The notes under the pieces are model-generated. The model saw nothing but the letters and a program-made list of their open reading frames with translations. It ran no database searches and was not told the origin of the DNA. This document shows positions 43,386 to 62,380 of a stretch of 64,000 nt of DNA, piece by piece. Location of the stretch: assembly GCF_003814915.1 (NCBI RefSeq), contig NZ_RKQK01000002.1, forward strand, positions 311,184 through 375,183, read 5' to 3'. Position 1 is the stretch's first letter; each line of letters starts with the position of its first letter. Made by a program: the position numbers and the translations under genes. The stretch comes from Pacificibacter maritimus. GTDB taxonomy: Bacteria > Pseudomonadota > Alphaproteobacteria > Rhodobacterales > Rhodobacteraceae.

Positions 43386-43706
43386 CTATCCGAGCATGAC
43401 GCCCAATCCGTTTTGGGCGATGCAAGAGATGGTTTCGGGTTGGCTGGCAATGGAAGTCACGATGCTCACCGTGGAATTATCAACGCCTGTCACAGCAGCG
43501 CGTGCAAGCGTCACAAGTTCGTCTGTTGAAGCTTGATCCACAATGCATTCTACATAGGGTTCCGCATTTACACCTGGTAGCTTTTGGGAAATCACCGAGT
43601 TGATGACCCCTTTAGCCGTAGAGCGTACAGTTTGTTCAACTGCCATCTCTGGCGCAAGGCAACCGCTCAAGAGAGCAGTTGCTGCTAAGATCCCCACGAG
43701 ACGCAT
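43386..43706 (-). CDS. Small lipoprotein inside the sdh operon
   Basis: 106 residues with a lipoprotein signal peptide [16 protein letters not shown]; Cys16 is the lipid site. Two further Cys are in PYVECIVDQAS and ETISCIAQNGLG and could form a disulfide in the periplasm. Its ATG overlaps the sdhA stop (TAATG) and its stop is ten bases before sdhB, so it is translated as part of the operon. No family is recognised. The position suggests a role at the envelope face of complex II or simply hitch-hiking; nothing in the sequence decides. Confidence 0.75.
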   Translation of the reverse strand: MRLVGILAATALLSGCLAPEMAVEQTVRSTAKGVINSVISQKLPGVNAEPYVECIVDQASTDELVTLARAAVTGVDNSTVSIVTSIASQPETISCIAQNGLGVMLG

Positions 43707-45514
43707 TAGAACGTCCGCGCTTTTGGTGCGATGGTTTTCAGGCTGATGCCACCTTCCGCTTCAGTGGACAAAGGATCTTTGACCACATCACGATGTGACA
43801 GTTTCACCTTATTGCCATCGACATGCGCAACGGTGTGAACGCGCCAAGCTTTATCATCACGCGTTGGGTAATCTTCATGCGCATGCGCGCCACGAGACTC
43901 TTTGCGTGCTTCAGCGCCAACGATGGTCGCCATAGCGTTTGGCATCAAGTTGGCCAGTTCCAGCGTTTCCATCAGATCAGAGTTCCACACAAGGCTGCGA
44001 TCGGTGACTTGTAGATCACCCATTTTGCCAGCGATGGCAGTCATCTTTTCGACGCCCTCTTTGAGCGTCTTATCTGTACGGAACACAGCTGCATCCGCTT
44101 GCATTGTTTTTTGCATCTCTAGACGCAGCTCAGCCGTTTTGATTTCGCCATTTGCTTGACGCAACCCATCGAAACGATCAAAGGCGGCATCAATTGACGC
44201 TTGGTTCAGCACAGGGTTCGGCGCCTCAGGGTCAACCACTTTGCCAGCCTTAATCGCAGAAGCACGACCAAAGACCACAAGGTCGATCAATGAATTCGAT
44301 CCAAGACGGTTTGCACCGTGAACCGACGCACAGCCCGCTTCGCCCACAGCCATAAGGCCAGGAACAATAGCGTTTTGATCATCTGCTGTTGGGTTTAAAA
44401 CCTCACCCCAATAGTTGGTTGGGATACCGCCCATGTTGTAATGCACTGTCGGCAAAACGGGGATCGGTTCTTTGGTGACATCAACGCCCGCAAAGATTTT
44501 TGCCGACTCTGAAATGCCAGGAAGACGTTCAGCGAGAGCTTCAGGTGGCAAGTGCGACAAGTTGAGGTGGATGTGATCGCCGTCAGCACCCACACCGCGA
44601 CCTTCACGAATTTCCATGGTCATAGAGCGAGACACGTAATCGCGTGGCGCGAGGTCTTTATAGGTCGGCGCGTACCGCTCCATGAAGCGTTCACCTTCGG
44701 AGTTGGTCAGGTAACCCCCTTCGCCGCGTGCGCCCTCGGTGATCAGACAGCCTGAGCCGTAAATCCCTGTTGGGTGGAATTGTACGAATTCCATATCCTG
44801 CAAAGCAAGACCCGCGCGTGCAACCATGCCGCCGCCGTCACCCGTACAGGTGTGTGCAGAGGTGGCTGAGAAGTAAGCACGGCCGTAACCGCCTGTCGCC
44901 AGAACAACCATTTTCGCGTTGAAGACGTGGAAAGTACCGTCGTCGAGTTTCCAGCAGACAACACCCTGACATTGACCGTCTTCAGACATGATCAAATCAA
45001 TCGCGAAGTATTCGATGTAGAACTCAGCGTTGTTTTTCAAAGACTGACCATACAACGTGTGCAAGATCGCGTGACCGGTACGGTCTGCGGCAGCACATGT
45101 ACGTTGAACGGGTGGGCCTTCGCCGAATTCAGTGGTGTGGCCACCAAATGGACGCTGGTAGATTTTGCCCTCTTCGGTGCGCGAGAAAGGCACACCGTAG
45201 TGTTCGAGTTCGTAAACCGCTTTGGGGGCTTCACGCGCGAGGTATTCCATCGCGTCTGTGTCGCCCAACCAGTCAGAACCTTTCACAGTGTCGTACATGT
45301 GCCACTGCCAGCTGTCTGGACCCATATTGCCCAGTGAGGCGGCGATACCGCCTTGGGCCGCAACAGTGTGCGAACGGGTTGGGAAAACTTTGGTGACACA
45401 AGCAGTGCGCAGACCCTGCTCGGCCATGCCGAGGGTCGCACGCAAGCCAGCGCCGCCAGCGCCGATCACAACGACATCATAGTCGTGTGTTTCATATTCA
45501 TAAGCTGCTGCCAT
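43706..45514 (-). CDS. sdhA: Succinate dehydrogenase flavoprotein subunit
   Basis: Oxidises succinate to fumarate. The 602 residues have the Rossmann motif [19 protein letters not shown], the covalent FAD His in [27 protein letters not shown]-like and [20 protein letters not shown] segments, QFHPTGIYG (substrate His), and REGRGVG with the catalytic Arg. C-terminal [18 protein letters not shown] is typical. AAGGAG precedes the ATG. sdhD ends 12 bases upstream. Confidence 0.98.
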
Positions 45515-45526
45515 GGGGTGTGCTCC

Positions 45527-45898
45527 TTACAGCGCGAGTTTTACAAGGCCAAAAAGGCCAGCGGCGATCAGGGTGTAAGACATCATGTTCACTGCGATGA
45601 TTGTGAACTTGCGCTTTAGACCACCCACGTAGTCCTCAATCAGAACCTGTGCGCCGTTTTTAAAGTGAATAAGGCCAACAACCAAAGTCAGGCCTGCGAT
45701 AATCGAAGGATAAGGTCTGCTGTATGTCGCAAGAACTTCTTCATATGTCCCGCCCAGCGCGTTGCCAAAGGACAAAACAAAAAGCGGGATAAGGATCAAC
45801 AAAGCGATAGACGATGTGATCATGTGCCAGTGATGCTCGGGGCCAGATTTGGCAGCGCCGAGTCCTACTGCGCGTTGGCGATCAGTGCGAAAAGACAT
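45527..45898 (-). CDS. sdhD: Succinate dehydrogenase membrane anchor subunit
   Basis: 123 residues with three membrane segments (SIALLILIPLFVLSF, IIAGLTLVVGLIHF, MSYTLIAAGLFGLV). EHHWHMI before the first segment and HFKNGAQVLIEDYVGG between segments two and three are conserved in the family, the latter close to the quinone site. GGGAGG precedes the ATG. With SdhC it anchors the enzyme and forms the ubiquinone pocket. Confidence 0.94.
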   Translation of the reverse strand: MSFRTDRQRAVGLGAAKSGPEHHWHMITSSIALLILIPLFVLSFGNALGGTYEEVLATYSRPYPSIIAGLTLVVGLIHFKNGAQVLIEDYVGGLKRKFTIIAVNMMSYTLIAAGLFGLVKLAL

Positions 45899-45912: not shown

Positions 45913-46302
45913 TTATGTGACGATCATGGTGAGGAATGTCAGCACAGTCGCGCCGATCAACATTGCCCAGCCTAGTTTTTCTGAGGTTTCAACGTTCAAG
46001 CAGTAGCCGAAATCCCAAGCAAGGTGACGCAAGCCGCCGCCCAAGTGGTACCAAAGCGCCCATGTTGAAAAGAAGAACACCAAATCGCCAAACCAAGAAC
46101 GCAAGAATGCGTCGGCTGTGGCAAAACATTCAGGTGAAACAGCTGCGGCAACAAGCCACCAGACGATCATGAATGTGGCAACGATCAATGCGTTACCAGT
46201 GATGCGGACAAGAATTGATGACATAGATGTCATCTGGGGACGATAGTATGTCCCGATCATAAAGGGTGACAGAGGGCGATTGCCTCGGTTCACATCAGCC
46301 AT
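45913..46302 (-). CDS. sdhC: Succinate dehydrogenase cytochrome b556 subunit
   Basis: First gene of the operon, 129 residues. RPLSPFMIGTYYRPQMTSMS is the usual N terminus with the Ser/Arg near the quinone, SILVRITGNAL follows, and HLGGGLRHLAWDFG contains the haem-ligand His. Three membrane segments. AAGGAATT precedes the ATG. The promoter region upstream has the paired GTGATCAC palindromes at 46439-46468. Confidence 0.95.
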   Translation of the reverse strand: MADVNRGNRPLSPFMIGTYYRPQMTSMSSILVRITGNALIVATFMIVWWLVAAAVSPECFATADAFLRSWFGDLVFFFSTWALWYHLGGGLRHLAWDFGYCLNVETSEKLGWAMLIGATVLTFLTMIVT

Positions 46303-46528
46303 GGCGAATTCCTTACACGTGATGCGGTGACGGTTCGATGATGTTGTATCAAGTTTTAGGGCAGAGTCATCTCTTGTCAGCGCTAACGAGTGATGAATTT
46401 GTTGGAAAATGAGATAAAAAGTAAGAAAAACTGAGTAGTGTGATCACAAATATTTGGTCGTGATCACAAAAACACCCCAAATGATATCCGACTATTTTCA
46501 TTGGATATAATGCCCCGCCAACACAGAA
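46303..46528 (-). promoter_or_regulatory. sdh control region
   Basis: 226 bases before sdhC. It holds the tandem GTGATCAC operators (listed separately) 137-166 bases before the start codon, an AT-rich stretch between them and the gene, and a separate inverted repeat ATATCC (46484-46489) / GGATAT (46503-46508). I could not place a clear sigma-70 promoter. Confidence 0.55.
46439..46468. promoter_or_regulatory. Tandem GTGATCAC operators before sdhC
   Basis: TGTGATCACA at 46439-46448 and CGTGATCACA at 46459-46468, centres exactly 20 bp apart (two helical turns). Both continue with AA on the plus strand, giving GTGATCACAAA. The same element occurs before sucC and gntR; the palindrome is of GntR/FadR operator size. 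Confidence 0.75.
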
Positions 46529-46750
46529 TTGAGCAAGGTTTTCAGCCAGGTGACAGCCGTGACCTGTTCGCAGTCGAATGATATCCCCGTGATGTTCTTT
46601 AGGCTTCAGAAAATAGAACGCGCAGATAGCCTGCCAAAGCGCCCTGTCGGCCCGCGCTGGCGGGGCACCATTTTATGCGAAACATTTACGCCGCAAGGTT
46701 TGGTCGAAAATGTAGACTTAGCGTTGAAGAACGACGTTTTGATTTACTGA
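46529..46750 (+). CDS. Doubtful small open frame
   Basis: A 73-residue frame from TTG, without a good ribosome site; an internal ATG at 46592 would give 52 residues. The C-terminal part (RPVGPRWRGTILCETFTPQG) has protein-like composition and codon use similar to neighbours, and the stop falls ten bases before the convergent DUF1737 gene, which is why it is listed. No family is recognised. It may be a remnant. Confidence 0.25.
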   Translation: MSKVFSQVTAVTCSQSNDIPVMFFRLQKIERADSLPKRPVGPRWRGTILCETFTPQGLVENVDLALKNDVLIY

Positions 46751-46759
46751 GCGAAGCTA

Positions 46760-46963
46760 TTAAAGCGCCCCGAGTTTAACATCCCGTGAATAGCTGCCCT
46801 CTGCGTCTTTTGTGACAGCTTGCGCACAGCGCATGGTCCCATTTGCCGCGTCATATGCGTAAGATGGGTCGCCATAGAGCGCCCACCCCTTATTCAGGGC
46901 TTCAGTCACCTTATGACAAAAGTCAGATGTGTCATCAGCAGTTAGCAATCGATAAGCTTTCAT
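46760..46963 (-). CDS. DUF1737 domain protein
   Basis: 67 residues, MKAYRLLTADDTSDFCHKVT, then EALNKGWALYGDPSYAYDA and MRCAQAVTKD, the full DUF1737 pattern (Y-R-L-L-T, G-W-x-L-Y-G). Unknown function; small cytoplasmic protein. The ATG at 46963 follows GGGGGTGA; the longer frame from 46999 would run into nnrU. The start lies four bases after the nnrU stop, so the two are cotranscribed. Confidence 0.85.
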   Translation of the reverse strand: MKAYRLLTADDTSDFCHKVTEALNKGWALYGDPSYAYDAANGTMRCAQAVTKDAEGSYSRDVKLGAL

Positions 46964-46967
46964 AGCT

Positions 46968-47513
46968 TCACCCCCAAGGCGTTGCACCCAGCGCTGCATG
47001 CAGCCCCATGATCACAACCGTCACAATCAATGCGCCGATCACCGCCATGACTTCTTTTTTCGCCCCAACAGGCACATAAGGTTCAGGCGTCACACCCGCG
47101 CGTTTAATTAAAATAACGCTCCAGACGGCCCACGCCAGCAATCCACCGAACAGCAAGAATGAGGCCAAATCACCGTTCACTAAAAGATGCGCCAAGGCCC
47201 AGACTTTCACAGCTGTCAGTTGTGGATTTTTGATTTTCGACGTGATCCAAGTTTTCATGCCAGAGGCGGCGAACAGATAGATCGCAAAAAGCATCAGCAG
47301 ATTATTGATACCAACCAAAGCTGGCACTCGCCCCCAGTAAACAGGGCCATCTGCGGTTTTATAGCCAATCACCATCAAAACGATCGCAATAAAAGACAAG
47401 GCCGCGACCAAGATGCGCCCTTTCTCGCCTAAATCTGCCCGCACATCAGGCGCGATGCGATTGAAAACATGCGCGCCTGTCCAAAGAACGACACCGAGTA
47501 TAATAAGGATCAT
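46968..47513 (-). CDS. NnrU family membrane protein
   Basis: 181 residues with five to six membrane segments. HVFNRIAPDVRADLGEKGR and WALAHLLVNGDLASFLLFGG, with His and Asn/Asp in the membrane, are the NnrU family signatures. In denitrifiers nnrU is near nitrite/nitric oxide reductase genes; related proteins act in isoprenoid isomerisation (carotenoid/chlorophyll context), so the role here is open. No denitrification gene is in the window. The gene lies three bases after the CitE-like lyase gene. Confidence 0.87.
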   Translation of the reverse strand: MILIILGVVLWTGAHVFNRIAPDVRADLGEKGRILVAALSFIAIVLMVIGYKTADGPVYWGRVPALVGINNLLMLFAIYLFAASGMKTWITSKIKNPQLTAVKVWALAHLLVNGDLASFLLFGGLLAWAVWSVILIKRAGVTPEPYVPVGAKKEVMAVIGALIVTVVIMGLHAALGATPWG

Positions 47514-47516
47514 GGC

Positions 47517-48359
47517 TTACTCCATTGCTTTGATCGCATGCGCTTTGTCTAAAAGAGCTTGTGCAGTGACTATATGAAGATTCTCAACGATTTGACCATC
47601 GACAACTGCAATTGCACTGCCGTTTACTTGTGCCTGTTCAAAAGCTGAGATTTGGCGCATGGCGAGATCAATGTCTTGATCACTTGGCGCAAATATCATG
47701 TTGGCCACTGCAAGCTGCGCGGGATGGATCAGAGTTTTGCCATCAAACCCCAAATCCCGCCCCTGTTCACATTCGCGCCGCAGCCCCGCTTCATCTTTGA
47801 AGGCATTGAAGACACCGTCCAAGATAGCGACCCCATGGGCACGTGCAGCCAAGAGGCAGCTCTGAAGCGCCGTCATCAATGGCAAACGATCCGCGCGAAA
47901 CCTCGCCCCTAAATCCTTGGCCAAATCATTGGTTCCCATGACAAACCCTGCGACACGCTCATGGCGCGCTATCTCACGCGCATTTAACACGCCAAGAGGC
48001 GTTTCTATCATCGCCCAAAGCGGTACATTTGGTACGACCTGAGCGAGCTGATCGACATCATCGACTGTGTTTACTTTGGGCAAAAGCACGGCATCGCAAG
48101 ACAGGCCAGTTAAGGCGTCAACGTCAAGCCCGCCCCAAGGGGTATCAAGACCGTTGATGCGGACAATTTTTAACCGCCGCCCATAGCCGCCCTGCGCCAA
48201 AGCCTGCCTAAGTGTTTCGCGTGCGGATGCTTTTTCATCGGGGCCAACAGCATCTTCTAGATCAAACACAATCGCATCACAGGCAAGCCCGCGCGCCTTA
48301 TCCAAAGCCCGCGTATTGGACGCTGGGATATATAGCGCAGAGCGCAAAAGTTGGGTCAT
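47517..48359 (-). CDS. CitE-like CoA-ester lyase
   Basis: 280 residues of the HpcH/HpaI aldolase-CitE superfamily. RSALYIPASNTRALDKARG, then DAIVFDLEDAVGPDEKASAR, with the Mg-binding Glu/Asp in FDLEDAV, VRINGLDTPWGGLD (Arg), LPKVNT, WAMIETPLGVLNA (Glu), and GTNDLAKDLG. DGKTLIHPAQL is the CoA-binding end. Family members split malyl-CoA, methylmalyl-CoA or citramalyl-CoA, or hydrolyse malyl-CoA (Mcl2 in Rhodobacter). I cannot choose between these. The start at 48359 gives the family N terminus. Confidence 0.88.
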   Translation of the reverse strand: MTQLLRSALYIPASNTRALDKARGLACDAIVFDLEDAVGPDEKASARETLRQALAQGGYGRRLKIVRINGLDTPWGGLDVDALTGLSCDAVLLPKVNTVDDVDQLAQVVPNVPLWAMIETPLGVLNAREIARHERVAGFVMGTNDLAKDLGARFRADRLPLMTALQSCLLAARAHGVAILDGVFNAFKDEAGLRRECEQGRDLGFDGKTLIHPAQLAVANMIFAPSDQDIDLAMRQISAFEQAQVNGSAIAVVDGQIVENLHIVTAQALLDKAHAIKAME

Positions 48360-48484
48360 CTTCTTGTCTTTCTGCATGTCGTGTTGGGCGATCGTTCTCA
48401 TGGCCCCTTTGCCCCCCAAAAACCGTAAAGGCATGGGATTTTCTTACTCCAGATGCGGTAGGAAGGGCTGAACAGGCCGAGGCA

Positions 48485-48499
48485 TTAACCAATTATTAC
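48485..48499 (+). promoter_or_regulatory. Weak CtrA-like site
   Basis: TTAA, seven bases, TTAC (48485-48499), one base off the CtrA consensus, 95 bases before the small exported-protein gene; a TTAAACTTTAAC sequence follows at 48540-48551. Motif match only. Confidence 0.25.
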
Positions 48500-48594
48500 C
48501 GCTCGCCCTCCAGCATAGGTCCATAAATATGAAGCCACGTTAAACTTTAACAGCGACGCCTTTCAAGTGCGTCCAGATACAGTAGGGATCAAAG

Positions 48595-48906
48595 ATGACG
48601 AAATTTGTTTACAGCCTCACTCTGGCCGCAATTGCAGGCATTATGCTCCCATCGGCCAGTATGGCGCGTCAACCCTGCGCCCAGCGCGACCAGATAATTG
48701 AGCGCCTGAACACCATTTATGGAGAGATACGCCAGTCTATCGGACTTGCACCCAACAACGGGTTGTTTGAAACATACGCCTCACCTGAAACGGGCAGCTG
48801 GACCATCTTGGTCACTTCAGTGCATGGGGTCACCTGCGTCATTGCATCGGGACAAGCATTTGAAACTTTGGCAGGTACGCTGCCGCCCGCTGGAGAAGAT
48901 GCATGA
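48595..48906 (+). CDS. Small exported protein of unknown function
   Basis: 103 residues. A signal peptide (FVYSLTLAAIAGIMLPSASMA) ends about SMA-RQ. The mature part has CAQRDQIIERLNTIYGE, then GLFETYASPETGSWTILVTS and VTCVIASGQAFE; the two Cys (in PCAQ and TCVIA) may form a disulfide. The pattern resembles short periplasmic proteins of roseobacters, but I recognise no named family. AGGGATC precedes the ATG. Its stop abuts the convergent TauE/SafE gene. Confidence 0.65.
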   Translation: MTKFVYSLTLAAIAGIMLPSASMARQPCAQRDQIIERLNTIYGEIRQSIGLAPNNGLFETYASPETGSWTILVTSVHGVTCVIASGQAFETLAGTLPPAGEDA

Positions 48907-50783
<1,877 letters not shown>

Positions 50784-50807
50784 GCCACTTTGATATCAGA
50801 AAAAATT

Positions 50808-50837
50808 AAAGGCCGGATCGTTAGGATTCGGCCTTTT
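50808..50837. terminator. Terminator after mdh
   Basis: AAAGGCCGGATC (50808-50819) pairs over 12 positions with GATTCGGCCTTT (50825-50836), one G-T wobble, loop GTTAG, then TT. T-runs exist on both strands, so it may also serve the convergent glycosyltransferase gene. Confidence 0.88.
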
Positions 50838-50868
50838 TCATGCGCTTGTAATTCTTAAGTTGGCGGCG

Positions 50869-51882
50869 CTAATCGCCAAAATATGACAGCCCAGCCATAT
50901 CCAACAACTCCGCATTTTCCGCGCGCAGGCACGCATCAAAACTGGCAGCACTCAAATCAAGACCCGCGCAACCTTGAGGCCCAAATGGAGTTTGATTCAA
51001 ACTCTGAAATCCCTCGTAAAATGCGACCTGATCTGTCGTCAATGCCTTCAAGGCTTGGGTCACTGTAGTCATTTTGTGACGGTCATGCGCGTGTTCGCGG
51101 GCATAAATCGCCTGCAAAATACGCTGCGATCCCATTTTGCGCTTGGGGCCATCGGGTGTTTCATAGCCTCGTTTCAAGATTTTCAATAGAAAGTGCAATC
51201 GCGTCAGCCCATCAAAATGGTAAAACAACGACCGCCCTTCGCGGCTTGGCGCACGCTCATTCGTGCCCCTCACATGCGCGCGGTGCACCCCCATCGACCA
51301 AGGCGCGCCTTTGGGAACAAATGCTTTTCCACCCACGTGGCCGCTAAACCCGTATTTCAGCATCGGGGCGAACTCCCCGAACAACGGCTCTGACACCAAA
51401 TCGAACATTTCAATCGGTTCGCGAAATGCGCCATCAAAAAGCTTTGCGTCTTGTCCTTTTTGATTTGCTGTCGGTGTATAAACGCGTTCGAAATTGCGAA
51501 TGATAACACAGCGATCGTTTGCACCAGATAGATCGTCAAAAACAACCGATCCGTCAGTGACAAACTCGTCCGCATCGCAATGCAGCAACCAATCTGTCAT
51601 GCCTAAAGCCTGCGCCTGTTCTGCATTGAATTTTTGTCGCGCAGTGTGACGCGGAGGGCGGCGGGATAGACCACTCTCGTTCCAATAATTTTGATCACAT
51701 TCCGTCACATAGCAGCGTTCAATCGGGGCAAGCATATCGCGTGCCGCTTCATTCTTTCGATCTAGGAAAATATGTACTGCATGTGCGCCAATGGTCAAAT
51801 GGTGTCGCACGAATGCCGCGATCAAAATTGCAGGTTCATCAACGGTCGCAACGACACCCCATGTTGGGCTCGAGTTTGGCAT
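50869..51882 (-). CDS. Glycosyltransferase family 2-type protein
   Basis: 337 residues. TWGVVATVDEPAILIAAFVR and HHLTIGAHAVHIFLDRKN are the usual N terminus of the Glyco_tranf_2_4 family, with LLHCDADEFV as the D-x-D metal/nucleotide-sugar site. HKMTTV and HVGGKAFVPKG further on are typical. No membrane segment. The acceptor is unknown, and no polysaccharide cluster is nearby. No ribosome site is evident before the ATG. It lies between mdh and the suc operon, opposite in orientation. Confidence 0.82.
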   Translation of the reverse strand: MPNSSPTWGVVATVDEPAILIAAFVRHHLTIGAHAVHIFLDRKNEAARDMLAPIERCYVTECDQNYWNESGLSRRPPRHTARQKFNAEQAQALGMTDWLLHCDADEFVTDGSVVFDDLSGANDRCVIIRNFERVYTPTANQKGQDAKLFDGAFREPIEMFDLVSEPLFGEFAPMLKYGFSGHVGGKAFVPKGAPWSMGVHRAHVRGTNERAPSREGRSLFYHFDGLTRLHFLLKILKRGYETPDGPKRKMGSQRILQAIYAREHAHDRHKMTTVTQALKALTTDQVAFYEGFQSLNQTPFGPQGCAGLDLSAASFDACLRAENAELLDMAGLSYFGD

Positions 51883-52193
51883 ATAATTTTAAGTCCATTA
51901 TGACACTTGGCGTTTTCACGCCTCAGAACACCGCAAAACTTTTGCTATAACAACCTAAATCGTGGTGTTGAGATTGAAAAAGGCACTTATAGAAAAGGGA
52001 ATCGCCCAACAGGAGTTGGCATTTTTGCTTTTAATCATTGCATTCACATGTTTTGTGATCACACGATTGAAGCCTGTGATCACAAATTGGCGAAATAATC
52101 ATTTTCTCTGACAACAACGGGAAAAAACTGTTCCTTAATACATGTAGTGTGTGTCATGTCTTATAAGAATAAAACTTAGGATGGGACCATTTC
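51883..52193 (+). promoter_or_regulatory. suc control region (311 bases without a gene)
   Basis: Lies between the glycosyltransferase homologue and sucC, which are divergent. It contains the tandem GTGATCAC operators (52054-52084), 110-140 bases before sucC, an AT-rich segment at 52090-52180, and AGGATGGGA before the sucC ATG. Small frames seen here have no ribosome site or family. Confidence 0.6.
52054..52084. promoter_or_regulatory. Tandem GTGATCAC operators before sucC
   Basis: TGTGATCACA at 52054-52063 and 52075-52084, centres 21 bp apart. The left copy reads GTGATCACAAA on the minus strand, the right copy on the plus strand, so the pair is head-to-head with A-runs outward. Same element as before sdhC and gntR. 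Confidence 0.75.
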
Positions 52194-53390
52194 ATGAATA
52201 TTCATGAGTATCAGGCGAAAGCATTGCTTCGCACATACGGCGCACCAGTTTCTGACGGGCGTGCTGTTTTGAATGCGGCAGATGCAAAAGCAGCAGCTGG
52301 CGAACTTGACGGACCACTATGGGTTGTGAAAGCACAAATCCACGCAGGCGGCCGCGGCAAAGGTAAATTTGTCGAAGCGGAAGCTGGCGAAAAAGGTGGC
52401 GTGCGTTTGGCATTCTCCGTTGAAGAAGCGGCAGAACAAGCGCAAAAAATGTTGGGGCAAACTTTGGTCACGCACCAAACAGGCCCAGCTGGTAAGCAAG
52501 TCAACCGCATCTACATCGAAGACGGTTCTGACATCGAAAAAGAATTGTACTTGGCTTTGCTCGTGGATCGTCAAACATCTCGCGTGTCTTTCGTTTGCTC
52601 CACTGAGGGCGGCATGGACATCGAAGAAGTTGCGGCAAACACACCTGAAAAAATCTTGTCTTTCTCAGTTGATCCTGCGTCTGGTTACCAAGCGTTCCAC
52701 GGCCGCCGCGTCGCATTCGCTTTGGGCCTTGAGGGCGCACAGGTTAAGCAATGTGTGAAATTGATGGGCAACCTCTACCGTGCTTTCACCGAGAAAGACA
52801 TGGAGATGCTCGAAATCAATCCTTTGATCGTTCTCGAAAAATCACTTGATCTTAAAGTGCTCGACGCGAAAGTGTCTTTCGACGGCAACGCAATGTACCG
52901 CCACGCGGACATCGCTGAACTGCGCGACGAGACTGAAGAAGATCCAAAAGAACTCGCAGCCTCTAAGCATGACCTCAACTACATCGCGCTCGACGGCGAA
53001 ATCGGTTGTATGGTGAACGGCGCAGGTCTGGCGATGGCCACAATGGACATCATCAAACTCTACGGCGCTGAGCCTGCGAACTTCCTCGACGTTGGTGGCG
53101 GTGCGACCAAAGAGAAAGTGACAGAAGCATTCAAAATCATCACTTCTGATCCTAACGTTAAAGGCATCCTCGTGAACATCTTCGGCGGCATCATGCGCTG
53201 TGATGTGATCGCAGAAGGCGTGATTGCAGCTGTGAAAGAAGTTGGTTTGCAGGTTCCGCTTGTTGTGCGCCTTGAGGGCACAAACGTTGAGCTTGGCAAA
53301 GACATCATCAAAAATTCAGGCTTGAATGTGATTGCTGCGGACGACCTGAAAGACGGCGCGCAAAAAATCGTTAAAGCGGTGAAAGGATAA
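52194..53390 (+). CDS. sucC: Succinyl-CoA synthetase beta subunit (ADP-forming)
   Basis: Makes succinate and ATP (or GTP) from succinyl-CoA with SucD. The 398 residues start [20 protein letters not shown], an ATP-grasp opening; [20 protein letters not shown] is the nucleotide loop, [14 protein letters not shown] and [14 protein letters not shown] bind Mg, and [20 protein letters not shown] leads the C-terminal domain. First gene of sucCD-odhAB-lpd, behind the paired palindromes. Confidence 0.98.
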
Positions 53391-53394
53391 TATC

Positions 53395-54279
53395 ATGGCC
53401 ATTCTCGTAAACGAAAACACCCGCGTCATCTGTCAGGGCCTAACAGGCTCACAAGGCACATTCCACTCAGAGCAAGCCATCGCATATGGCACCAAAATGG
53501 TTGGCGGCGTGACACCAGGCAAAGGCGGCATGACCCACCTTGACCTGCCAGTGTTCAACTCTGTTCACGAAGCGAAACACGTCACAGAAGCAAACGCCTC
53601 TGTGATCTACGTGCCTCCGCCCTTCGCAGCGGATTCAATCCTTGAGGCGATCGACGCCGAAATGGAATTGATCATCTGTATCACTGAGGGCATCCCTGTT
53701 CTTGACATGATGAAAGTTCAGCGCGCTTTGGAAGGATCTAAGTCACGCTTGATCGGACCAAACTGCCCAGGCGTTATCACACCTGACGCATGTAAAATCG
53801 GCATCATGCCAGGCCACATCCACAACCGTGGCTCTGTTGGCGTTGTGTCCCGTTCTGGCACATTGACATATGAAGCTGTGAAACAGACATCTGATCTGGG
53901 CCTCGGCCAATCCACAGCTGTGGGCATCGGCGGCGACCCCATCAAAGGGTCCGAGCACATCGACATCCTCGACATGTTCTTGGACGACGACGAAACCGAA
54001 TCCATCATCATGATCGGCGAAATCGGCGGTTCCGCAGAAGAAGAAGCCGCAGAATTCCTCGCAGAGCAGCGTAAAAAAGGCCGTTGGAAACCAACAGCTG
54101 GCTTTATCGCAGGTCGCACAGCCCCTCCCGGCCGTCGCATGGGCCACGCTGGCGCGATTGTTGCAGGTGGTAAAGGTGATGCAGAAAGCAAAATCGAAGC
54201 CATGAAATCTGCTGGTATCGTTGTGGCGGATAGCCCTGCGACCCTTGGCGAAGCTGTTATGGCAGCGATCAAAGCTTAA
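53395..54279 (+). CDS. sucD: Succinyl-CoA synthetase alpha subunit
   Basis: 294 residues. [20 protein letters not shown], the CoA-binding Rossmann start, is followed by [20 protein letters not shown], and the phosphohistidine is in [30 protein letters not shown] and [19 protein letters not shown] are typical. It starts four bases after sucC. A terminator-like hairpin separates it from odhA. Confidence 0.98.
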
Positions 54280-54295
54280 TAAACAGCTAAAAATT

Positions 54296-54329
54296 GCCTG
54301 TCCCCATGTCGAATTGGGGTCAGGCTTTT
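54296..54329 (+). terminator. Terminator-like hairpin between sucD and odhA
   Basis: GCCTGTCCCCA (54296-54306) pairs with TGGGGTCAGGC (54315-54325) except for one T-T mismatch, loop of eight bases, followed by TTTT. It lies 16 bases after sucD and 70 before odhA on a continuing operon, so partial termination is likely. Confidence 0.75.
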
Positions 54330-54398
54330 CCACATCAGGCGATGCGTCTATAGCGCAGATAGCCATAACGCATCGACATCAAACCCAAGGTCATTTTC

Positions 54399-57362
54399 AT
54401 GTCAGACCAAAGCGACAACGACATTTTCCACGCGTCTTCCTTTATGCAAGGCCACAATGCGGAATACCTCGAACAGATGTATGCCCGCTATGCCACTGAC
54501 CCGTCTTCAGTTGATGCGTCATGGAATGAGTTTTTCAAAAGCTTGGGCGACACAGCCGCTGATGCGCAAGCCGAAGCCGCGGGCCCATCTTGGGGGCGCA
54601 ATGATTGGCCGCCTGTACCAAATGACGATTTGACCGCAGCGCTGGATGGCCAATGGGCCGCAGAACCAGAAGCCGCTGGCAAGAAAATCAAAGCCAAAGC
54701 CGACGAAAAAGGCGTTCAGGTTTCTGACGACCAAATCAAACGCGCCGTGCTGGATTCAATCCGCGCCTTGATGATCATTCGCGCCTACCGTATTCGCGGT
54801 CACTTGGTTGCTGATCTTGATCCGTTGAAAATGAAAGCGGACACACCGCATCCCGAGCTTGATCCAAAATCATACGGTTTCACCGAAGCTGACATGGATC
54901 GCCCGATTTTCATCGACAACGTGCTCGGCTTGCAAATGGCCTCTATGCGTCAGATTTTGGACATCGTGAAGCGCACCTATTGTGGCACTTTCGCGATGCA
55001 ATACATGCATATTTCCGACCCCGAACAAGCGGGTTGGTTGAAAGAGCGGATCGAAGGCTACGGCAAAGAAATCCAGTTTACGAAAAACGGCCGCAAGGCC
55101 ATTTTGAACAAGCTGGTTGAAGCTGAAGGTTTTGAGAAATTCCTGCATGTGAAATACATGGGCACCAAGCGGTTCGGCCTTGATGGCGGCGAAAGCTTGA
55201 TCCCTGCGATGGAACAAATCATCAAACGCGGCGGCAACTTGGGCGTCAAAGAAATCATCATCGGCATGCCGCACCGCGGTCGTTTGTCTGTGCTGTCCAA
55301 CGTGATGAGCAAACCCTACCGCGCGATTTTCCACGAATTCCAAGGTGGGTCATTCAAACCCGAAGACGTGGATGGATCAGGCGATGTGAAATACCACTTG
55401 GGCGCCTCATCTGACCGCGAATTTGATGGCAACACAGTGCACTTGTCACTGACAGCAAACCCATCGCATCTTGAAGCCGTAAATCCTGTTGTGCTTGGTA
55501 AAGTACGTGCGAAAACTGACCAGAACAACGACCCTGAGCGTACATCGGTGATTCCAGTGTTGCTGCACGGCGATGCCGCATTCGCGGGCCAAGGTGTTGT
55601 CGCAGAGTGTTTCGGCTTGTCCGGCCTGCGCGGTCACAAAACAGGCGGCACAATCCATATCGTTGTGAACAACCAAATTGGCTTTACCACTGCGCCGCAT
55701 TTCTCACGCTCTAGCCCCTACCCAACAGACAACGCCCTTGTTGTTGAGGCGCCGATTTTCCACGTGAACGGTGACGATCCTGAAGCCGTTGTACACGCGG
55801 CAAAGGTTGCGACTGAGTTCCGTCAGAAATTCCACAAAGACGTTGTGATCGACATCTTCTGTTACCGCCGTTTTGGTCACAACGAAGGCGACGAGCCGAT
55901 GTTCACCAACCCTGCGATGTACACAACGATCAAAAAGCACAAGACAACCTTGCAGCTTTACACAGATCGTTTGGTCAAAGACGGCCTGATCCCAGAGGGC
56001 GAAATCGAAGATATGAAAGCCGCCTTCCAAGCGCATCTGAATGATGAGTTCGAAGCGGGCAAAAACTTTAAACCGAACCGAGCTGATTGGTTGGATGGGC
56101 GCTGGTCGCATATCAACAAAGAAGGCGAAGAATACCAACGTGGTCAAACTTCGATTTCTGCCGAAACAATGGCCGAAGTTGGCAAATCTTTGTCGCATAA
56201 GCCTGATGAGCTCACCATCCACAAAACAGTTGGCCGTCAGCTTGAAGCCAAATCCAAGATGTTTGAAACGGGTGAAGGCTTTGATTGGGCAACAGGCGAA
56301 GCCTTGGCATTTGGATCGCTTTTGACCGAAGGCTACCCAGTCCGCTTGGCAGGACAAGATTCCACGCGCGGAACCTTCTCACATCGTCACTCTGCGTTGA
56401 TCGATCAGAAATCCGAAGACCGCTACTACCCACTCAACAACATCCGCGAAGGCCAAGCACAGTACGAAGTCATCGACTCTATGCTGTCTGAATATGCGGT
56501 GCTTGGATTTGAATACGGCTACTCATTGGCCGAACCAAATTCTTTGGTGATGTGGGAAGCACAGTTCGGCGATTTCGCCAACGGCGCGCAGATCATGTTC
56601 GACCAATTCATCTCATCGGGTGAAAGCAAATGGTTGCGCATGTCGGGTCTCGTGATGTTGTTGCCACACGGCTATGAGGGCCAAGGCCCAGAACACTCCT
56701 CAGCCCGCCTTGAGCGCTTCTTGCAAATGTGTGGTCAGGACAACTGGATCGTAGCGAACTGTACGACACCGGCGAACTATTTCCACATCTTGCGCCGTCA
56801 AATCCACCGCTCTTTCCGCAAGCCTCTCGTTTTGATGACACCAAAATCGCTTTTGCGTCACAAGCTTGCAACATCGGTTGCCGCTGATTTCACCGAAGGA
56901 TCATCATTCCACCGCGCTCTTTGGGATGATGCCGATGCACAGCATCGCACTGGCAAATCCGACATTACGCTGAAAGATGACGATAAAATAAAACGTGTCG
57001 TGATCTGTTCGGGCAAGGTCTACTACGACCTTCTAGAAGCGCGTGATGAAGCGGGCAAAGACGACACTTATATCTTGCGCCTTGAGCAATTCTACCCTTT
57101 CCCCGCCCTTGCAATGGTCAAGGAATTGGAACGCTTCAAGGGGGCCGAAATTGTTTGGTGCCAAGAAGAACCCAAAAACCAAGGCGGTTGGACATTTGTC
57201 GAGCCAAACATCGAATGGGTTCTCACCCGTATCGGTGCAACACATACGCGCCCAGTCTACGCTGGCCGCACCGCATCTGCGTCACCTGCAACTGGTCTCG
57301 CATCCCAACACAAAGCACAACAACTGGCGCTCATTAATGACGCGCTAAACATCGAAGGGTAA
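54399..57362 (+). CDS. sucA: 2-oxoglutarate dehydrogenase E1 component
   Basis: Thiamine-diphosphate decarboxylase of the oxoglutarate dehydrogenase complex. The 987 residues start with the E2-binding peptide region ([20 protein letters not shown]), then [37 protein letters not shown] (His of the active site), [16 protein letters not shown] with NNQIGFTT (TPP-Mg), and [20 protein letters not shown]. The C-terminal domain reads [18 protein letters not shown] is nine bases before the ATG. Confidence 0.98.
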
Positions 57363-57366
57363 TCCC

Positions 57367-58857
57367 ATGTCTGTTGAAGTCCGCGTCCCGACCCTCGGCG
57401 AAAGCGTCACCGAAGCCACTGTCGCTACTTGGTTCAAAAAGCCAGGTGATACCGTTGCTGTTGATGAAATGCTTTGCGAATTGGAAACTGATAAAGTGAC
57501 CGTCGAAGTTCCATCCCCTGCGGCTGGCACATTCGGCGAAATCATCGCAGCTGAAGGCGAAACAGTTGGTGTTGACGCCCTCTTGGCGACTTTGAACGCA
57601 GGTGACAGCGCAGGCGCCGCTCCTGCCGCAGCGCCTGCTGCAGAAAAATCAGCCCCTGCTTCAGATGCAGCTGGCTCAAGCGTTGATGTTATGGTGCCAA
57701 CACTCGGCGAATCCGTAACGGAAGCGACTGTTGCAACTTGGTTCAAAGCTGTTGGTGATACAGTCGCGCAAGACGAAATGCTGTGTGAACTTGAGACTGA
57801 TAAAGTTTCAGTTGAAGTGCCTGCACCCGCCGCTGGCACATTGACTGAAATCATAGCAGCAGAAGGCGCGACAGTTGATGCGACTGCCAAACTTGGTGTT
57901 ATTTCATCAGGTAAAGGCGCAGCCGCTTCGGCGCCAGCTGCAACATCAACCCCTGCTGCGACATCAGGCAAAGACGTTGAAAACGCGCCATCAGCCAACA
58001 AACTTATGGCCGAAAACGGTGTTGACGCAGGATCGATCACAGGCACTGGCAAAGATGGTCGCATCATGAAAGACGATGTGCTCAAAGCCATGTCAGCGCC
58101 AAAAGCAGCCCCTGCACCAGCAGCCGCACCACGTGCAGCTTCGGCACCTGCAGATGCAGCCCGCGAAGAGCGCGTGAAAATGACAAAACTGCGCCAAACA
58201 ATCGCGCGCCGTTTGAAAGAATCGCAAAACACCGCTGCGATGCTGACCACCTACAACGAAGTCGACATGACCGAAGTCATGTCTCTGCGCAATGAATACA
58301 AAGACCTGTTCTTGAAAAAGCACGGCGTCAAATTGGGCTTCATGTCCTTCTTTACCAAAGCCTGTATCCACGCTTTGAACGAAGTGCCTGAAGTGAATGC
58401 CGAGATCGACGGCACTGACATCGTGTACAAAAACTATGTCAACATGGGCATTGCTGCAGGCACGCCAACAGGTCTTGTTGTGCCTGTGATCCGTGACGCC
58501 GATGGCATGTCTTTTGCAGACATCGAAAAAGCGATTGCTGAAAAAGGCGCGCGTGCCCGTGACGGCAAGTTGTCCATGGCTGAAATGCAAGGCGGCACAT
58601 TCACCATCTCTAACGGTGGTGTTTATGGTTCCTTGATGTCATCCCCGATCTTGAACCCTCCACAGTCTGGCATCTTGGGCATGCACAAAATCCAAGACCG
58701 TCCTATGGCGATCAATGGCCAAGTTGTGATCCGTCCGATGATGTACCTTGCACTAAGCTACGATCACCGCATCGTTGACGGCAAAGGTGCCGTGACCTTC
58801 CTTGTGCGCGTCAAAGAAGCGCTGGAAGATCCACGTCGTTTGTTGATGGATCTGTAA
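57367..58857 (+). CDS. sucB: 2-oxoglutarate dehydrogenase E2 (dihydrolipoyl succinyltransferase), two lipoyl domains
   Basis: 496-residue core of the complex. Two lipoyl domains are visible: residues about 3-78 with lipoyl-Lys in [11 protein letters not shown], and about 109-184 with [11 protein letters not shown]; they share the block [16 protein letters not shown]. Ala/Pro-rich linkers follow each. Then the E3-binding domain ([31 protein letters not shown]) and the acyltransferase domain ending in [10 protein letters not shown]. coli SucB has one lipoyl domain. It starts four bases after odhA. Confidence 0.97.
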
Positions 58858-58866
58858 ATCAAATCT

Positions 58867-58892
58867 GGGCGGGCTTCGGTCCGCCCTAATTT
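58867..58892 (+). terminator. cUUCGg tetraloop hairpin between sucB and lpd
   Basis: GGGCGGGC (58867-58874), TTCG, GTCCGCCC (58879-58886), one wobble pair, then TAATTT. The C(UUCG)G loop is extra stable; the position, nine bases after the sucB stop, fits a terminator or processing site with lpd continuing 71 bases on. Confidence 0.75.
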
Positions 58893-58957
58893 ACTAAAAC
58901 GCTTTTCTAACTTTGTGGGTCGAGACATGCGCTCCCCATCATCTAGGAGAAACCACA

Positions 58958-60352
58958 ATGGCTTCCTACGACGTAATCATCATCGGTGCTGGCCCTGGCG
59001 GCTATGTTTCTGCAATTCGCTGTGCGCAGCTCGGCCTGAAAACGGCTGTCGTTGAAGGCCGCGACACCTTGGGCGGTACATGCCTTAACGTCGGCTGTAT
59101 CCCGTCCAAAGCTTTGCTCAACGCAACACACCACTTGCACGAAGCAGAGCACAACTTTGCCAAGATGGGCCTCAAAGGCAAATCGCCTTCCGTCGACTGG
59201 AATCAGATGAAAGCCTACAAAGATGACGTTGTTGGCCAAAACACTGGCGGCATCGAATTCTTGTTTAAAAAGAACAAAATCGACTGGATCAAAGGTTGGG
59301 CATCTGTCCCTGCGGCTGGCAAAGTGAAAGTTGGCGACGAGGTACACGAGGCGAAAAATATCGTTATCGCATCGGGTTCTGTCCCATCAAGCTTGCCTGG
59401 CATCGAAGTCGACAATGACGCAGGCGTCGTGGTCGACAGTACAGGCGCGCTTGAATTGCCTAAAGTCCCCAAGAAAATGACCGTCATCGGCGCAGGCGTC
59501 ATCGGGCTTGAGCTGGGGTCTGTTTACGCACGCTTGGGCACCGAAGTCACCGTTGTAGAATACATGGACGCGATTACACCTGGCATGGATGCAGACGTGC
59601 AGCGCACCTTCAAAAAGCTGCTTGAAAAGCAGGGGCTAACATTCATCATGGGTGCCGCGGTTCAGGGCGTTGAAGCGAATAAAACCAAAGCCAAAGTGTC
59701 TTACAAACTCAAAAAAGACGACTCTGATCACGTGCTTGATGCAGATGTCGTTCTTGTTGCAACTGGCCGCAAAGCCTTCACAGACGGTCTTGGCCTCGCT
59801 GAGATCGGCGTTGAGTTCACAGAGCGCGGTCAGGTCAAAACCAACGCGCATTGGGCCACAAACGTATCAGGCATTTACGCCATCGGTGACGCCATCGAGG
59901 GACCAATGTTGGCGCACAAAGCCGAAGACGAAGGCATGGCCGTCGCAGAAGTCATCGCAGGCAAACATGGCCACGTGAACTATGATGTCATTCCCGGTGT
60001 CGTTTACACATCGCCCGAAGTTGCCACAGTCGGCAAAACTGAAGCCGCTTTGAAAGCCGAAGGTCGCAAGATCAAAGTTGGCAAGTTTTCCTTCATGGGC
60101 AACGCACGCGCCAAAGCCGTGTTCCAAGGCGACGGTTTCGTGAAACTCATCGCGGACGCAGAAACCGACCGTCTGCTCGGTGCTGCGATCATCGGGCCGT
60201 CAGCTGGCGATATGATCCACGAGATTTGTGTGGCAATGGAATACGGCGGATCGGCGCAAGACGTTGCTATGACCTGCCACGCGCACCCGACTTATTCCGA
60301 AGCTGTGCGCGAAGCCGCACTGGCCTTGGGCGATGGTCCAATCCACGCCTAA
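58958..60352 (+). CDS. lpdA: Dihydrolipoyl dehydrogenase
   Basis: Flavoprotein E3 that reoxidises lipoyl groups with NAD. The 464 residues start [19 protein letters not shown], with the redox disulfide in [19 protein letters not shown] loop [22 protein letters not shown] segment [20 protein letters not shown] and catalytic His in [11 protein letters not shown]. The ATG at 58958 follows AGGAGAA; an in-frame GTG at 58913 would add 15 residues and is not needed. The product serves OdhA/B directly upstream. Confidence 0.97.
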
Positions 60353-60374
60353 AATTTAGGTTCAACACATCACA

Positions 60375-60400
60375 AAGGGCGGCCCATAGAGGCCGCCCTT
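60375..60400. terminator. Terminator between lpd and the thioesterase gene
   Basis: AAGGGCGGCC (60375-60384) and GGCCGCCCTT (60391-60400) form a perfect 10-bp stem with loop CATAGA. It lies between convergent genes and can serve both. Confidence 0.82.
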
Positions 60401-60423
60401 CATGCTTTTAAACTATCGTCCGC

Positions 60424-60906
60424 TTAAGTCCCACTGATAGCAGCCATCTTGGCCGCATGTTCTTTGCGCAGCTCTTTGCGCAATTCTGCCGCACGCCAAC
60501 GGCGACGATCCAGTTCAGTCATTGGTTGGAACTGCGGTGCTGCAACGGGTTTGCCATCGTCATCAACTGCGATCATCGTGAAGTAACAGCTATTGGTGTG
60601 ACGCAGCTTACGGGTGCGAATGTTTTCCGCTTCCACACGAATTCCGATTTCCATAGAGCTGCGGCCTACATGATTAACAGAGGATCGAAAATGCACCAAT
60701 TCGCCCACATGAATAGGCTCTTTGAACATCACCTGATCCACTGAAAGCGTCACAGCGTATTTAGCGGAAAAACGCGACGCGCATGAGAAAGCGACAAGAT
60801 CCAGAATTTTCAACAACGCGCCCCCATGCACCTTGCCAGAAAAATTCGCCATCTCAGGCGTCATAAGTTCTGTCATTTCTAAGAAGCGTGAATTTTCCAT
60901 AGTCAT
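60424..60906 (-). CDS. Acyl-CoA thioesterase, hotdog fold
   Basis: 160 residues. MANFSGKVHGGALLKILDLVAF-like start (the hotdog helix, with Asn/Asp and Gly-Gly), SVDQVMFKEPIHVGELVHF and GRSSMEIGIRVEAEN are typical of the YciA/BFIT-like group. The catalytic Asp fits DLVAFSCASRF. The tail is rich in Arg/Lys/Glu. Preference among acyl-CoAs is not readable. It starts 28 bases after the gntR stop on the same strand, so the regulator and thioesterase form an operon. Confidence 0.87.
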   Translation of the reverse strand: MTMENSRFLEMTELMTPEMANFSGKVHGGALLKILDLVAFSCASRFSAKYAVTLSVDQVMFKEPIHVGELVHFRSSVNHVGRSSMEIGIRVEAENIRTRKLRHTNSCYFTMIAVDDDGKPVAAPQFQPMTELDRRRWRAAELRKELRKEHAAKMAAISGT

Positions 60907-60934
60907 CTCATATCATAAGGTCAGTGAGGGTGGA

Positions 60935-61567
60935 TCAAACGACCAAAAGTCGCAAGCCTTGCGTCACATCAGATCGCAATGCCAAACGCAAGCTTGGCTC
61001 ATCGCCAGCACGCAGCGCAGCAACAATCAAACGATGGTTGTGCGGCACTTCTGTGCGGTTCAGTCGCGCATAGAGCGACCGCATCGTAGGCCCAAGTTGC
61101 AGCCAAACGGTTTCCGTCAAAGCCAGCATTGCAGGCGCTTGCGCGCGCAAATAAAGCGTGCGGTGAAATTCCAAATTGGTGCGGATATAGCCAACATCGT
61201 CATGCTTGGCCGCGCATTCCGCGATCGTCGCATTGATTGCTTGCAATCGGTCGATCAGGGCAAGATGCGCGCGCGGCAATGCCCGCGACCCCAGTTCAGG
61301 TTCGATCAAAGCACGTATCGAGGCCAGTTCTTCAATACGTTCGCTGGATAGCTCAGGCGTACTCACCCGCCCCGAAGATGACAGCGTCAAACCGCCATCG
61401 GCAACGAGTCGGCGTACGGCTTCACGCGCGGGTGTCATGGAAACATCAAATGCCTTGCCAATCCCGCGGATGGTCATGGACTGTCCGGGGCGAAATTCCC
61501 CATGCATGATTTGACCGCGCAACGTCCTATAAACACGTTCATGCGCCGCGGTTGCTGTGTCATGCAT
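60935..61567 (-). CDS. GntR-family (FadR/FCD) transcription regulator
   Basis: 210 residues. The winged helix-turn-helix covers AHERVYRTLRGQIMHGEFRP, GKAFDVSMTPAREAVRRL and the wing SSSGRVSTP. The C-terminal FCD domain is all-helical (ELASIRALIEPELGSRAL, NLEFHRTLYLRAQAPAML), with His/Asp positions that could bind metal or a carboxylate. The ATG at 61567 lacks a ribosome site; 61603 and 61669 are alternatives, but a TTGACC box and the operator lie upstream of 61603 and argue against the longest. Operator arrangement suggests autorepression. Confidence 0.88.
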   Translation of the reverse strand: MHDTATAAHERVYRTLRGQIMHGEFRPGQSMTIRGIGKAFDVSMTPAREAVRRLVADGGLTLSSSGRVSTPELSSERIEELASIRALIEPELGSRALPRAHLALIDRLQAINATIAECAAKHDDVGYIRTNLEFHRTLYLRAQAPAMLALTETVWLQLGPTMRSLYARLNRTEVPHNHRLIVAALRAGDEPSLRLALRSDVTQGLRLLVV

Positions 61568-61611
61568 TTTCGGCGGTTGGCTGATGGGCAGTTGTGGTAT
61601 CATTTTATTAA

Positions 61612-61638
61612 TGTGATCACAAAGCTGAAGAAGGTCAA
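61612..61638 (-). promoter_or_regulatory. gntR promoter with overlapping GTGATCAC operator
   Basis: On the minus strand TTGACC (61638-61633) is a good -35 box, and the perfect palindrome TGTGATCACA (61612-61621) lies in the spacer and -10 zone (CACATT/CATTAA). It again extends to GTGATCACAAA on the plus strand. An operator in that place blocks RNA polymerase, typical of autorepression. The -10 box itself is weak. Confidence 0.6.
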
Positions 61639-61681
61639 TCGCAGATGTCCCCAAGCCAACGCAAATCAAGCACTTATGGCC

Positions 61682-62380
61682 TCAAGTGACCTTATCGAAC
61701 CGCCACGCATGTAAGGCTTGGCCTTCAATCCGCAACCAGTCTCTGTGCAGTTTAAAATCGGGGCAGACAGCACGGACATGCGCCCAAAACCGATCAGAGT
61801 GATTCATTTCCAATCTGTGGGCTACCTCATGCGCTGCGACGTAATCCAAAACGGGGTCAGGTGCCATCACCAAGCGCCATGAGTACATAAGATTGCCATC
61901 ACTCGTGCAGGACCCCCAGCGCGAACGCGTATCACGGATGGTCAAGCGCCCATAATCTGTATCCAAGAGTTTGGCGTATTTATCGGAGGCCGCACGAAAC
62001 CGTGTCTTGGCCTGCAATTTTAGAAAGGCTTCAACCCGAGGCCCCACCATTTCGGCGTGATCGGGAACCACCAAGGTTTCATCTTGCACGCGCGCGGCGC
62101 GCACAGCGCCAGAAACGATCAACAGGTCTTGCCCCCGATAGGGCACCCGCACCCCAAGTTTCGCGAAACGCACATCAGGCAACCCGCCAAGGTTGTCGCG
62201 AATCCATGGCTCTTTGTCGCGCAAGAAAGCCAAAGCGGATTTTTCATTGGTGCGCAGCGGCATCGACAGAGTGACCCGCCCATCTAAGCGTGACACACGC
62301 AATGATAGTCTGCGTGTGCGCGCAGATCGGCGCAAGATCACCCCGATGGTGGGGTCGCCTTCTAAAATGACTTGATCCAT
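61682..62380 (-). CDS. YgjP/DUF45-type zinc metallopeptidase domain protein
   Basis: 232 residues of the M48-related YgjP family. The zinc motif is AAHEVAHRLEMNHSDRFW (H-E-x-x-H followed by a second His), preceded by SRWGSCTSDGNLMYSWRLVM, the constant substrate-side block of the family. The N-terminal half has VILRRSARTRRLSLRVSRLD. Targets are unknown. It diverges from the TIGR02300 gene, with about 190 bases between. Confidence 0.9.
   Translation of the reverse strand: MDQVILEGDPTIGVILRRSARTRRLSLRVSRLDGRVTLSMPLRTNEKSALAFLRDKEPWIRDNLGGLPDVRFAKLGVRVPYRGQDLLIVSGAVRAARVQDETLVVPDHAEMVGPRVEAFLKLQAKTRFRAASDKYAKLLDTDYGRLTIRDTRSRWGSCTSDGNLMYSWRLVMAPDPVLDYVAAHEVAHRLEMNHSDRFWAHVRAVCPDFKLHRDWLRIEGQALHAWRFDKVT

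What the first reader, a model, noticed from the sequence alone, without database searches (positions are those of the whole stretch)
46439..61621. One GntR-type operator, GTGATCACAAA, before sdh, suc-odh and the local gntR gene
Reading by eye, the palindrome GTGATCAC occurs five times: 46460-46467 and 46440-46447 before sdhC, 52055-52062 and 52076-52083 before sucC, and 61613-61620 before gntR. All five are between genes, and all extend to GTGATCACAAA on one strand. A given 8-mer is expected about once by chance in 64 kb. The FadR/GntR protein at 60935-61567 is the only nearby regulator of a family with operators of this size. I infer that it controls succinate dehydrogenase and the whole succinyl-CoA synthetase / oxoglutarate dehydrogenase operon. 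I know of no description of this exact regulon but cannot search the literature.
Basis: partly seen in the sequence, partly recalled or inferred. Interest (0 to 1): 0.82.

Follow-up and report, generated by a model that had tools for sequence, protein, structure and literature searches.

The report
AkgR operators of TCA-cycle genes

Summary
The five sites are real: GTGATCACAAA occurs exactly five times in the window, between genes. In the whole genome the 11-mer occurs seven times; the other two lie inside frames. Of 150 genomes of the family, 15 lack a close relative of the window's GntR, and 13 of these lack the pair; 3 of 135 with it lack the exact pair, each with a likely reason. A control regulator shows a weaker but similar association. 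The protein is the counterpart of R. sphaeroides RSP_0981 (AkgR): 73% identical, at the place its locus number demands. RSP_0981 is published as predicted regulator of sucCD, odh and sdh, and GTGATCAC as an AkgR motif. So the inference is supported but known. In the passages I could read I saw no mention of the tandem layout, its joint absence with the gene, or the variable site at the gntR start.

The parts
46440..46467 (-). Tandem operator before sdhC: GTGATCAC-N12-GTGATCAC, centre spacing 20 bp, 137 bp before the sdhC start
   Evidence: such pairs recur before sdhC in Rhodobacterales
52052..52086 (+). Tandem operator before sucC: TTTGTGATCACA-N11-TGTGATCACAAA, centre spacing 21 bp, 110 bp before the sucC start
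   Evidence: present before sucC in 49 of 50 genomes outside the lacking set (48 exact, 1 with one mismatch), absent in 12 of 12 of the lacking set
61613..61623 (+). Single GTGATCACAAA at the start of gntR (akgR), ending 9 bases before the likely ATG at 61603; candidate autoregulatory site
   Evidence: an exact GTGATCAC beginning 14-45 bp before the first aligned residue in 23 of 30 loci, the window's included
60935..61603 (-). gntR = counterpart of akgR, 222 codons with ATG at 61603 (210 with ATG at 61567); GntR HTH plus FCD domain
   Evidence: 73% identical to the GntR beyond sdhB in R. sphaeroides
45913..46302 (-). sdhC, first gene of the sdh cluster (sdhD 45527-45898, sdhA 43706-45514, sdhB 42597-43376)
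   Evidence: frames; named by reading and by matching order in R. sphaeroides
52194..60352 (+). sucC (52194-53390), sucD (53395-54279), odhA (54399-57362), odhB (57367-58857), lpd (58958-60352): candidate operon downstream of the tandem operator
   Evidence: frames; same order in R. sphaeroides

Best explanation
This is the AkgR regulon in another member of the family of Rhodobacter sphaeroides. The GntR/FCD protein encoded at 60935-61603 is the counterpart of RSP_0981 (AkgR). Most likely two AkgR dimers bind side by side on one face of the DNA (sites 20-21 bp, two turns, apart), about 110-140 bp before sdhC and sucC, and raise transcription of succinate dehydrogenase and of the succinyl-CoA synthetase / 2-oxoglutarate dehydrogenase genes together in response to a metabolite that I cannot name. 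A single copy of the site lies against the start of the regulator gene itself, where a bound dimer would hinder transcription or translation start, giving negative feedback. Shown here: the sites, their conservation, their tie to the gene, orthology. From print (passages): RSP_0981 as predicted regulator of these operons, AkgR as an activator, GTGATCAC among its sites. Recalled: that AkgR is RSP_0981. Inferred: two-dimer binding, activation in this organism, autorepression, an effector.
For: Sites. Joint occurrence in 150 genomes: gene present 132 with and 3 without the exact pair, gene absent 2 with and 13 without, Fisher p 3e-14, relatedness not corrected. The 3: G035 has two pairs with one mismatch, one just before its sucC; in G139 no sucC was found and in G056 only a weak match (E 1.3e-65), which suggests assembly gaps. 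In 12 of 12 lacking genomes with sucC, the best resemblance in 330 bp upstream has 3-7 mismatches. Orthology: G046 carries a reaction-centre M chain identical over 308 residues to PDB 4v9g (recalled as R. sphaeroides); its GntR, 73% identical, stands beyond sdhB with one frame between, fitting RSP_0981 given sucC RSP_0967, mdh 0968, mcl-2 0970, sdhA 0976, sdhB 0979. Literature: passages of PMC4344238 and PMC6365646. Narrowness: TGTGATCACA occurs 3 times in the R. sphaeroides genome, all in the two operators; 4 of 5 places in G091 and 4 of 8 in the window's genome are sdh, suc or gntR sites.
Against: G018 and G105 keep the pair without a detected close relative of the gene, though both are fragmented. 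A control regulator of the same family (from locus L143) is also associated with the pair (130/4 and 4/12, p 2e-11; absence = best E worse than 1e-60), so part of the association is shared ancestry or genome reduction. Of the 9 genomes that tell the two apart, 7 side with this gene and 2 do not; if the weak control matches of G004 and G016 (56-57% identity) are not counted as present, 5 of 7 do. On the tree, a quick one with gappy rows, 4 independent pairs rest on strong branches; the site goes the same way in 3.8 of 4 on average, median p 0.125, not significant. G123 has the gene but no site before its sucC. R. sphaeroides has no GTGATCAC at its gntR, and 7 of 30 loci lack it. No binding or expression data for this organism. 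A Pseudomonas GntR-like protein to which AkgR is 32% identical is proposed to use the same palindrome, so the motif alone does not name the protein.
Confidence: 0.83

Rival explanations
1. The sites belong to another GntR/FCD regulator of the genome (there are 12 FCD proteins) and the local gene is a bystander.
For: Twelve FCD proteins in the genome; a control member, L143, is also associated with the pair; in 17 of the 30 best-matching genomes gntR lies more than 17 kb from sucC or on another contig (coordinates, counted by eye).
Against: Seven of nine discriminating genomes side with the local gene. The gene at its counterpart's locus in R. sphaeroides is published as predicted regulator of exactly these operons, and GTGATCAC as an AkgR motif. 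The local gene carries the site itself in 23 of 30 loci. Of the other 11 FCD proteins only L143 was tested.
Confidence: 0.05
2. The local protein binds these sites but represses the operons, being released by a metabolite, rather than activating them.
For: Most FCD regulators are repressors (recalled); the single site at the gntR start would fit repression of that gene. No promoter could be placed relative to the sites.
Against: AkgR is called a transcriptional activator in print (passage). The pairs lie 94-204 bp before the start codons in the regions examined, leaving room for a promoter downstream.
Confidence: 0.1
3. The LacI-type regulator CceR or another global regulator uses the sites.
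For: Succinate dehydrogenase, 2-oxoglutarate dehydrogenase and fumarase are reported in the CceR regulon of R. sphaeroides (passage).
Against: The same passage says they are not in it in Paracoccus denitrificans; a P. denitrificans record carries a 70% identical GntR. CceR's motif and distribution were not compared here.
Confidence: 0.02

Closest known systems
AkgR (recalled as RSP_0981) of Rhodobacter sphaeroides, Imam, Noguera and Donohue 2015
   Same: Orthologous gene (73% identity), same target operons (sucCD, odh, sdh), same palindrome, and the same tandem pair at 21-bp spacing before both operons in the R. sphaeroides genome
   Different: Here the gene stands beyond lpd instead of beyond sdhB, the sdh pair has a 12-bp spacer, and the gene carries its own site, which R. 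sphaeroides lacks
PS417_07240 of Pseudomonas simiae (deoxyribonate cluster regulator)
   Same: GntR-like, proposed to bind GTGATCAC at -47 to -40 before its own gene (passage)
   Different: AkgR is 32% identical to it; different pathway
McbR of E. coli (PDB 4p9f)
   Same: Closest solved structure by sequence, E 2.2e-19
   Different: Other targets and physiology (recalled)
CceR (LacI family)
   Same: Also reported to act on TCA-cycle genes in R. sphaeroides (passage)
   Different: Different protein family (recalled); these targets are not in its regulon in P. denitrificans

Membership tests
AkgR | GntR-type HTH with FCD ligand domain | tested here: met
   PF00392 47.7 bits and PF07729 67.2 bits, both over the curated cut-off
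AkgR | Orthologous to RSP_0981 | tested here: met
   73% identical to the GntR at the RSP_0981 position of the R. sphaeroides genome; a match at E 8e-80 or better in 135 of 150 family genomes. RSP_0981's own record was not available and reciprocal best hits were not run
AkgR | Recognises GTGATCAC | tested here: inconclusive
   Sites present and co-occur with the gene; binding itself not testable here
AkgR | Operators before sucC and sdhC | tested here: met
   Pairs precede sucC and sdhC in the window, in R. sphaeroides and in relatives
AkgR | Activates its targets | not testable with these tools
   Only the word 'activator' in a passage
FadR in the strict sense (acyl-CoA responsive) | FadR C-terminal domain instead of FCD (recalled) | tested here: not met
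   Pfam lists FCD and GntR only at E up to 0.001

The most novel reading that the evidence does not exclude
AkgR works as an obligate pair of dimers on a two-turn double operator that keeps both copies letter-perfect in most genomes of a whole bacterial family; gene and double operator come and go together (at least four changes on strong branches of the tree, direction not determined), while a start-codon feedback site varies by lineage. AkgR would then be a dedicated, narrow switch for the lower TCA cycle.
Probability: 0.5. Interest if true: 0.4.

Novelty: already known. Interest (0 to 1): 0.25.

Why it matters
It ties a raw-sequence observation to a published regulator and indicates that the circuit is conserved across Rhodobacterales. 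The conserved double operator, the family genomes without the gene and the variable feedback site make the mechanism (cooperativity, activation, autoregulation) directly testable.

Tried and rejected
Promoter position: a simple sigma-70-like scan between site and start codon scored no better than shuffled sequence (8.19 against 8.16 for sdhC, 7.78 against 7.95 for sucC), so no activator class is claimed; CGTGAC in 22 of 35 sdhC regions, at a median of 58 bp after the site, is only a hint.

Naming G046 by plasmid comparison: the first 20 kb of contigs 7 and 6 found no match in the plasmid collection; a reaction-centre protein against the PDB did.

Linkage as evidence: none of the 120 stretches (3.1-8 kb) holds a relative of the GntR at E 0.001 (one search repeats it with a positive control, best chance match E 0.18). 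In the 30 best-matching genomes gntR is within 17 kb of sucC in 13 (coordinates, counted by eye; some of the other 17 are on another contig and could still be near). Nearness was therefore dropped as an argument.

Wider regulon: of the four other TGTGATCACA places of the genome three are inside frames; the fourth (C1:361672) lies between a serS-like frame and the start of another frame, 10 bases before it, so an extra target there is not excluded. The one extra place in G091 is inside a frame (gene names by eye).

Literature: the primary paper (10.1128/mBio.02461-14) is not held; I know its title from reference lists and its content by recall. A text search for GTGATCAC found 397 papers, of which I saw a listing of 40, none evidently on this system. 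Other searches. Since the primary paper was not read, I do not claim that the double-operator layout is absent from print.

Full report
Observation. GTGATCACAAA is present exactly at the five stated places. Two lie 20 bp apart centre to centre before sdhC, two 21 bp apart before sucC, and one ends 9 bases before the likely ATG of gntR. A sixth GTGATCAC at 31864 is inside a frame and lacks the AAA. In the whole 3.08-Mb genome the 8-mer occurs 111 times, so it is not rare enough to carry the argument; of the first 15 places in contig order 13 lie inside frames of 150 codons or more. The 11-mer occurs 7 times: the five, and two inside frames.

Recurrence. Sorting all 130 places in them (order read from the record titles): in Rhodobacterales 70 have a 12- or 13-bp spacer, of which 66 stand 60-260 bp before sdhC or sucC, 3 stand on the mdh side where sucC is cut off by the end of the stretch held, and 1 is inside a folC-like frame (name by eye). 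Other spacings occur twice in Rhodobacterales. In other or unplaced records 19 have a 12- or 13-bp spacer, 4 of them before sdhC or sucC. Among regions chosen because they hold the exact pair, the consensus is TTTGTGATCACA-N11-TGTGATCACAAA, itself symmetric, with a 13-bp spacer in 30 of 35 sdhC and 75 of 86 distinct sucC regions.

Gene and sites together. In 150 genomes of the family (one per genus, at least 90% complete), 135 have a close relative of the window's GntR (best E 8e-80 or better) and 15 do not (best E 9.5e-46 or worse; one has no match). The exact pair is in 134 and missing in 16. Gene present: 132 with and 3 without pair; gene absent: 2 with and 13 without. For the three: G035 has two one-mismatch pairs, one just before its sucC; in G139 no sucC was found and in G056 only a weak match, which suggests assembly gaps. 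The two with pair but no gene, G018 and G105, are in 210 and 320 contigs. In 12 of the 13 lacking genomes sucC is found (not in G106), and its 330 bp upstream hold nothing nearer than 3-7 mismatches to the pair; G016 with 3 may be a remnant. Of the 50 other genomes examined in that call, G018 among them, 48 have the exact pair before sucC, 1 has one mismatch, and G123 has none; G123 has one pair elsewhere in its genome.

Controls. Another FCD regulator of the genome (L143; absence = best E worse than 1e-60) shows a similar though weaker association: 130/4 and 4/12 raw; after counting G035 as having the pair and dropping G056 and G139, 131/3 and 4/10, against 133/0 and 2/13 for the window's gene. 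So shared ancestry and genome reduction contribute. Nine genomes separate the two regulators; seven agree with the window's gene, two (G018, G105) do not; without G004 and G016, whose control matches are only 56-57% identical, it is five of seven. A quick tree of 62 genomes from SucC, SucD and OdhA, with five rows under half filled, needs 6 changes for the lacking group, 4 of them forced by strong branches; 4 independent pairs on strong branches go the same way in 3.8 on average, median p 0.125, too few to be significant.

Identity of the regulator. The protein has GntR and FCD domains. G046, a genome of the same family with contigs of 3,188,524, 943,018, 114,045 and 37,100 bases among its seven, carries a reaction-centre M chain identical over 308 residues to PDB 4v9g, which I recall as R. 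sphaeroides. Along its chromosome lie, in order, lpd, odhB, odhA, sucD, sucC, mdh, a TauE-like gene, mcl-2, an NnrU-like gene, further frames, sdhC, sdhD, sdhA, sdhB, one frame, the GntR (73% identical to the window's) and a YgjP-like gene. Published locus numbers sucD 0966, sucC 0967, mdh 0968, sdhA 0976, sdhB 0979 (passage of PMC8920488) and mcl-2 0970, mch 0973 (passage of PMC6747724) fit this GntR to RSP_0981. [quoted passage not shown] sphaeroides. The equation AkgR = RSP_0981 is my recall of the primary paper, which is not held; its title is seen in reference lists.

Narrowness. TGTGATCACA occurs 3 times in the R. sphaeroides genome, all in the two operators; 5 times in G091, 4 of them sucC (2), sdhC and gntR sites; 8 times in the window's genome, 4 of them sites of this set, 3 inside frames and 1 between genes just before another frame.

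Mechanism. Two sites two helical turns apart suit two dimers side by side; their distance of 94-204 bp from the start codons leaves room for a promoter. I could not place that promoter, so activation rests on the printed word 'activator'. The site at gntR begins 14-45 bp before the first aligned residue in 23 of 30 loci examined, the window's included, and is missing at the R. sphaeroides gene; in 7 of the 23 a stop in frame separates it from the protein. Negative feedback there is inferred and lineage-dependent.

Odds. The novel case went from 0.55 to 0.50 because gain and loss cannot be told apart on the tree.

Verdict. Interest is low except for the double-operator layout, its joint absence with the gene, and the variable feedback site, none of which I saw in the passages that I could read.

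Noticed in passing
window 31864-31871: Sixth GTGATCAC, inside a permease-like frame (by eye), not extended by AAA; probably chance.
   Followed up: yes
window 60935-61603: The recognition-helix region reads VSMTPAREAVRRL; VSMTP.RE..RRL is kept at 95% or more per position in 31 aligned loci, whereas L143 and L144, two of the four other FCD proteins that my pattern caught, read VSRTPIREAL. The Arg-to-Met change may set the operator preference.
   Followed up: partly
window 60935-61603: The metal-site residues recalled for FCD domains (Asp, His, His, His) look changed: H147, H190 and D212 are invariant in 31 aligned loci, with Asn before the first His and Asp in place of the last His (the reference motif is recalled).
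   Followed up: no
L214 (G016), upstream of sucC: GCGATCGC-N12-GCGATCAC, three mismatches, in a genome without a close gntR relative: possible decayed operator.
   Followed up: no
L275 position 1501 (G000:C1:361672): A TGTGATCACA between a serS-like frame and the start of a TspO-like frame (names by eye), 10 bases before the latter: a possible extra target.
   Followed up: no
regions upstream of sucC in 88 loci: GGGACA recurs shortly before the sucC start codon in 43 of 88 regions, perhaps the ribosome-binding region.
   Followed up: no
window 60424-62380: Thioesterase-like, gntR and YgjP-like genes (names by eye) stand in a row on the minus strand; gntR next to the YgjP-like gene is also seen in R. 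sphaeroides and in G091, where gntR is on another contig than sucC.
   Followed up: no
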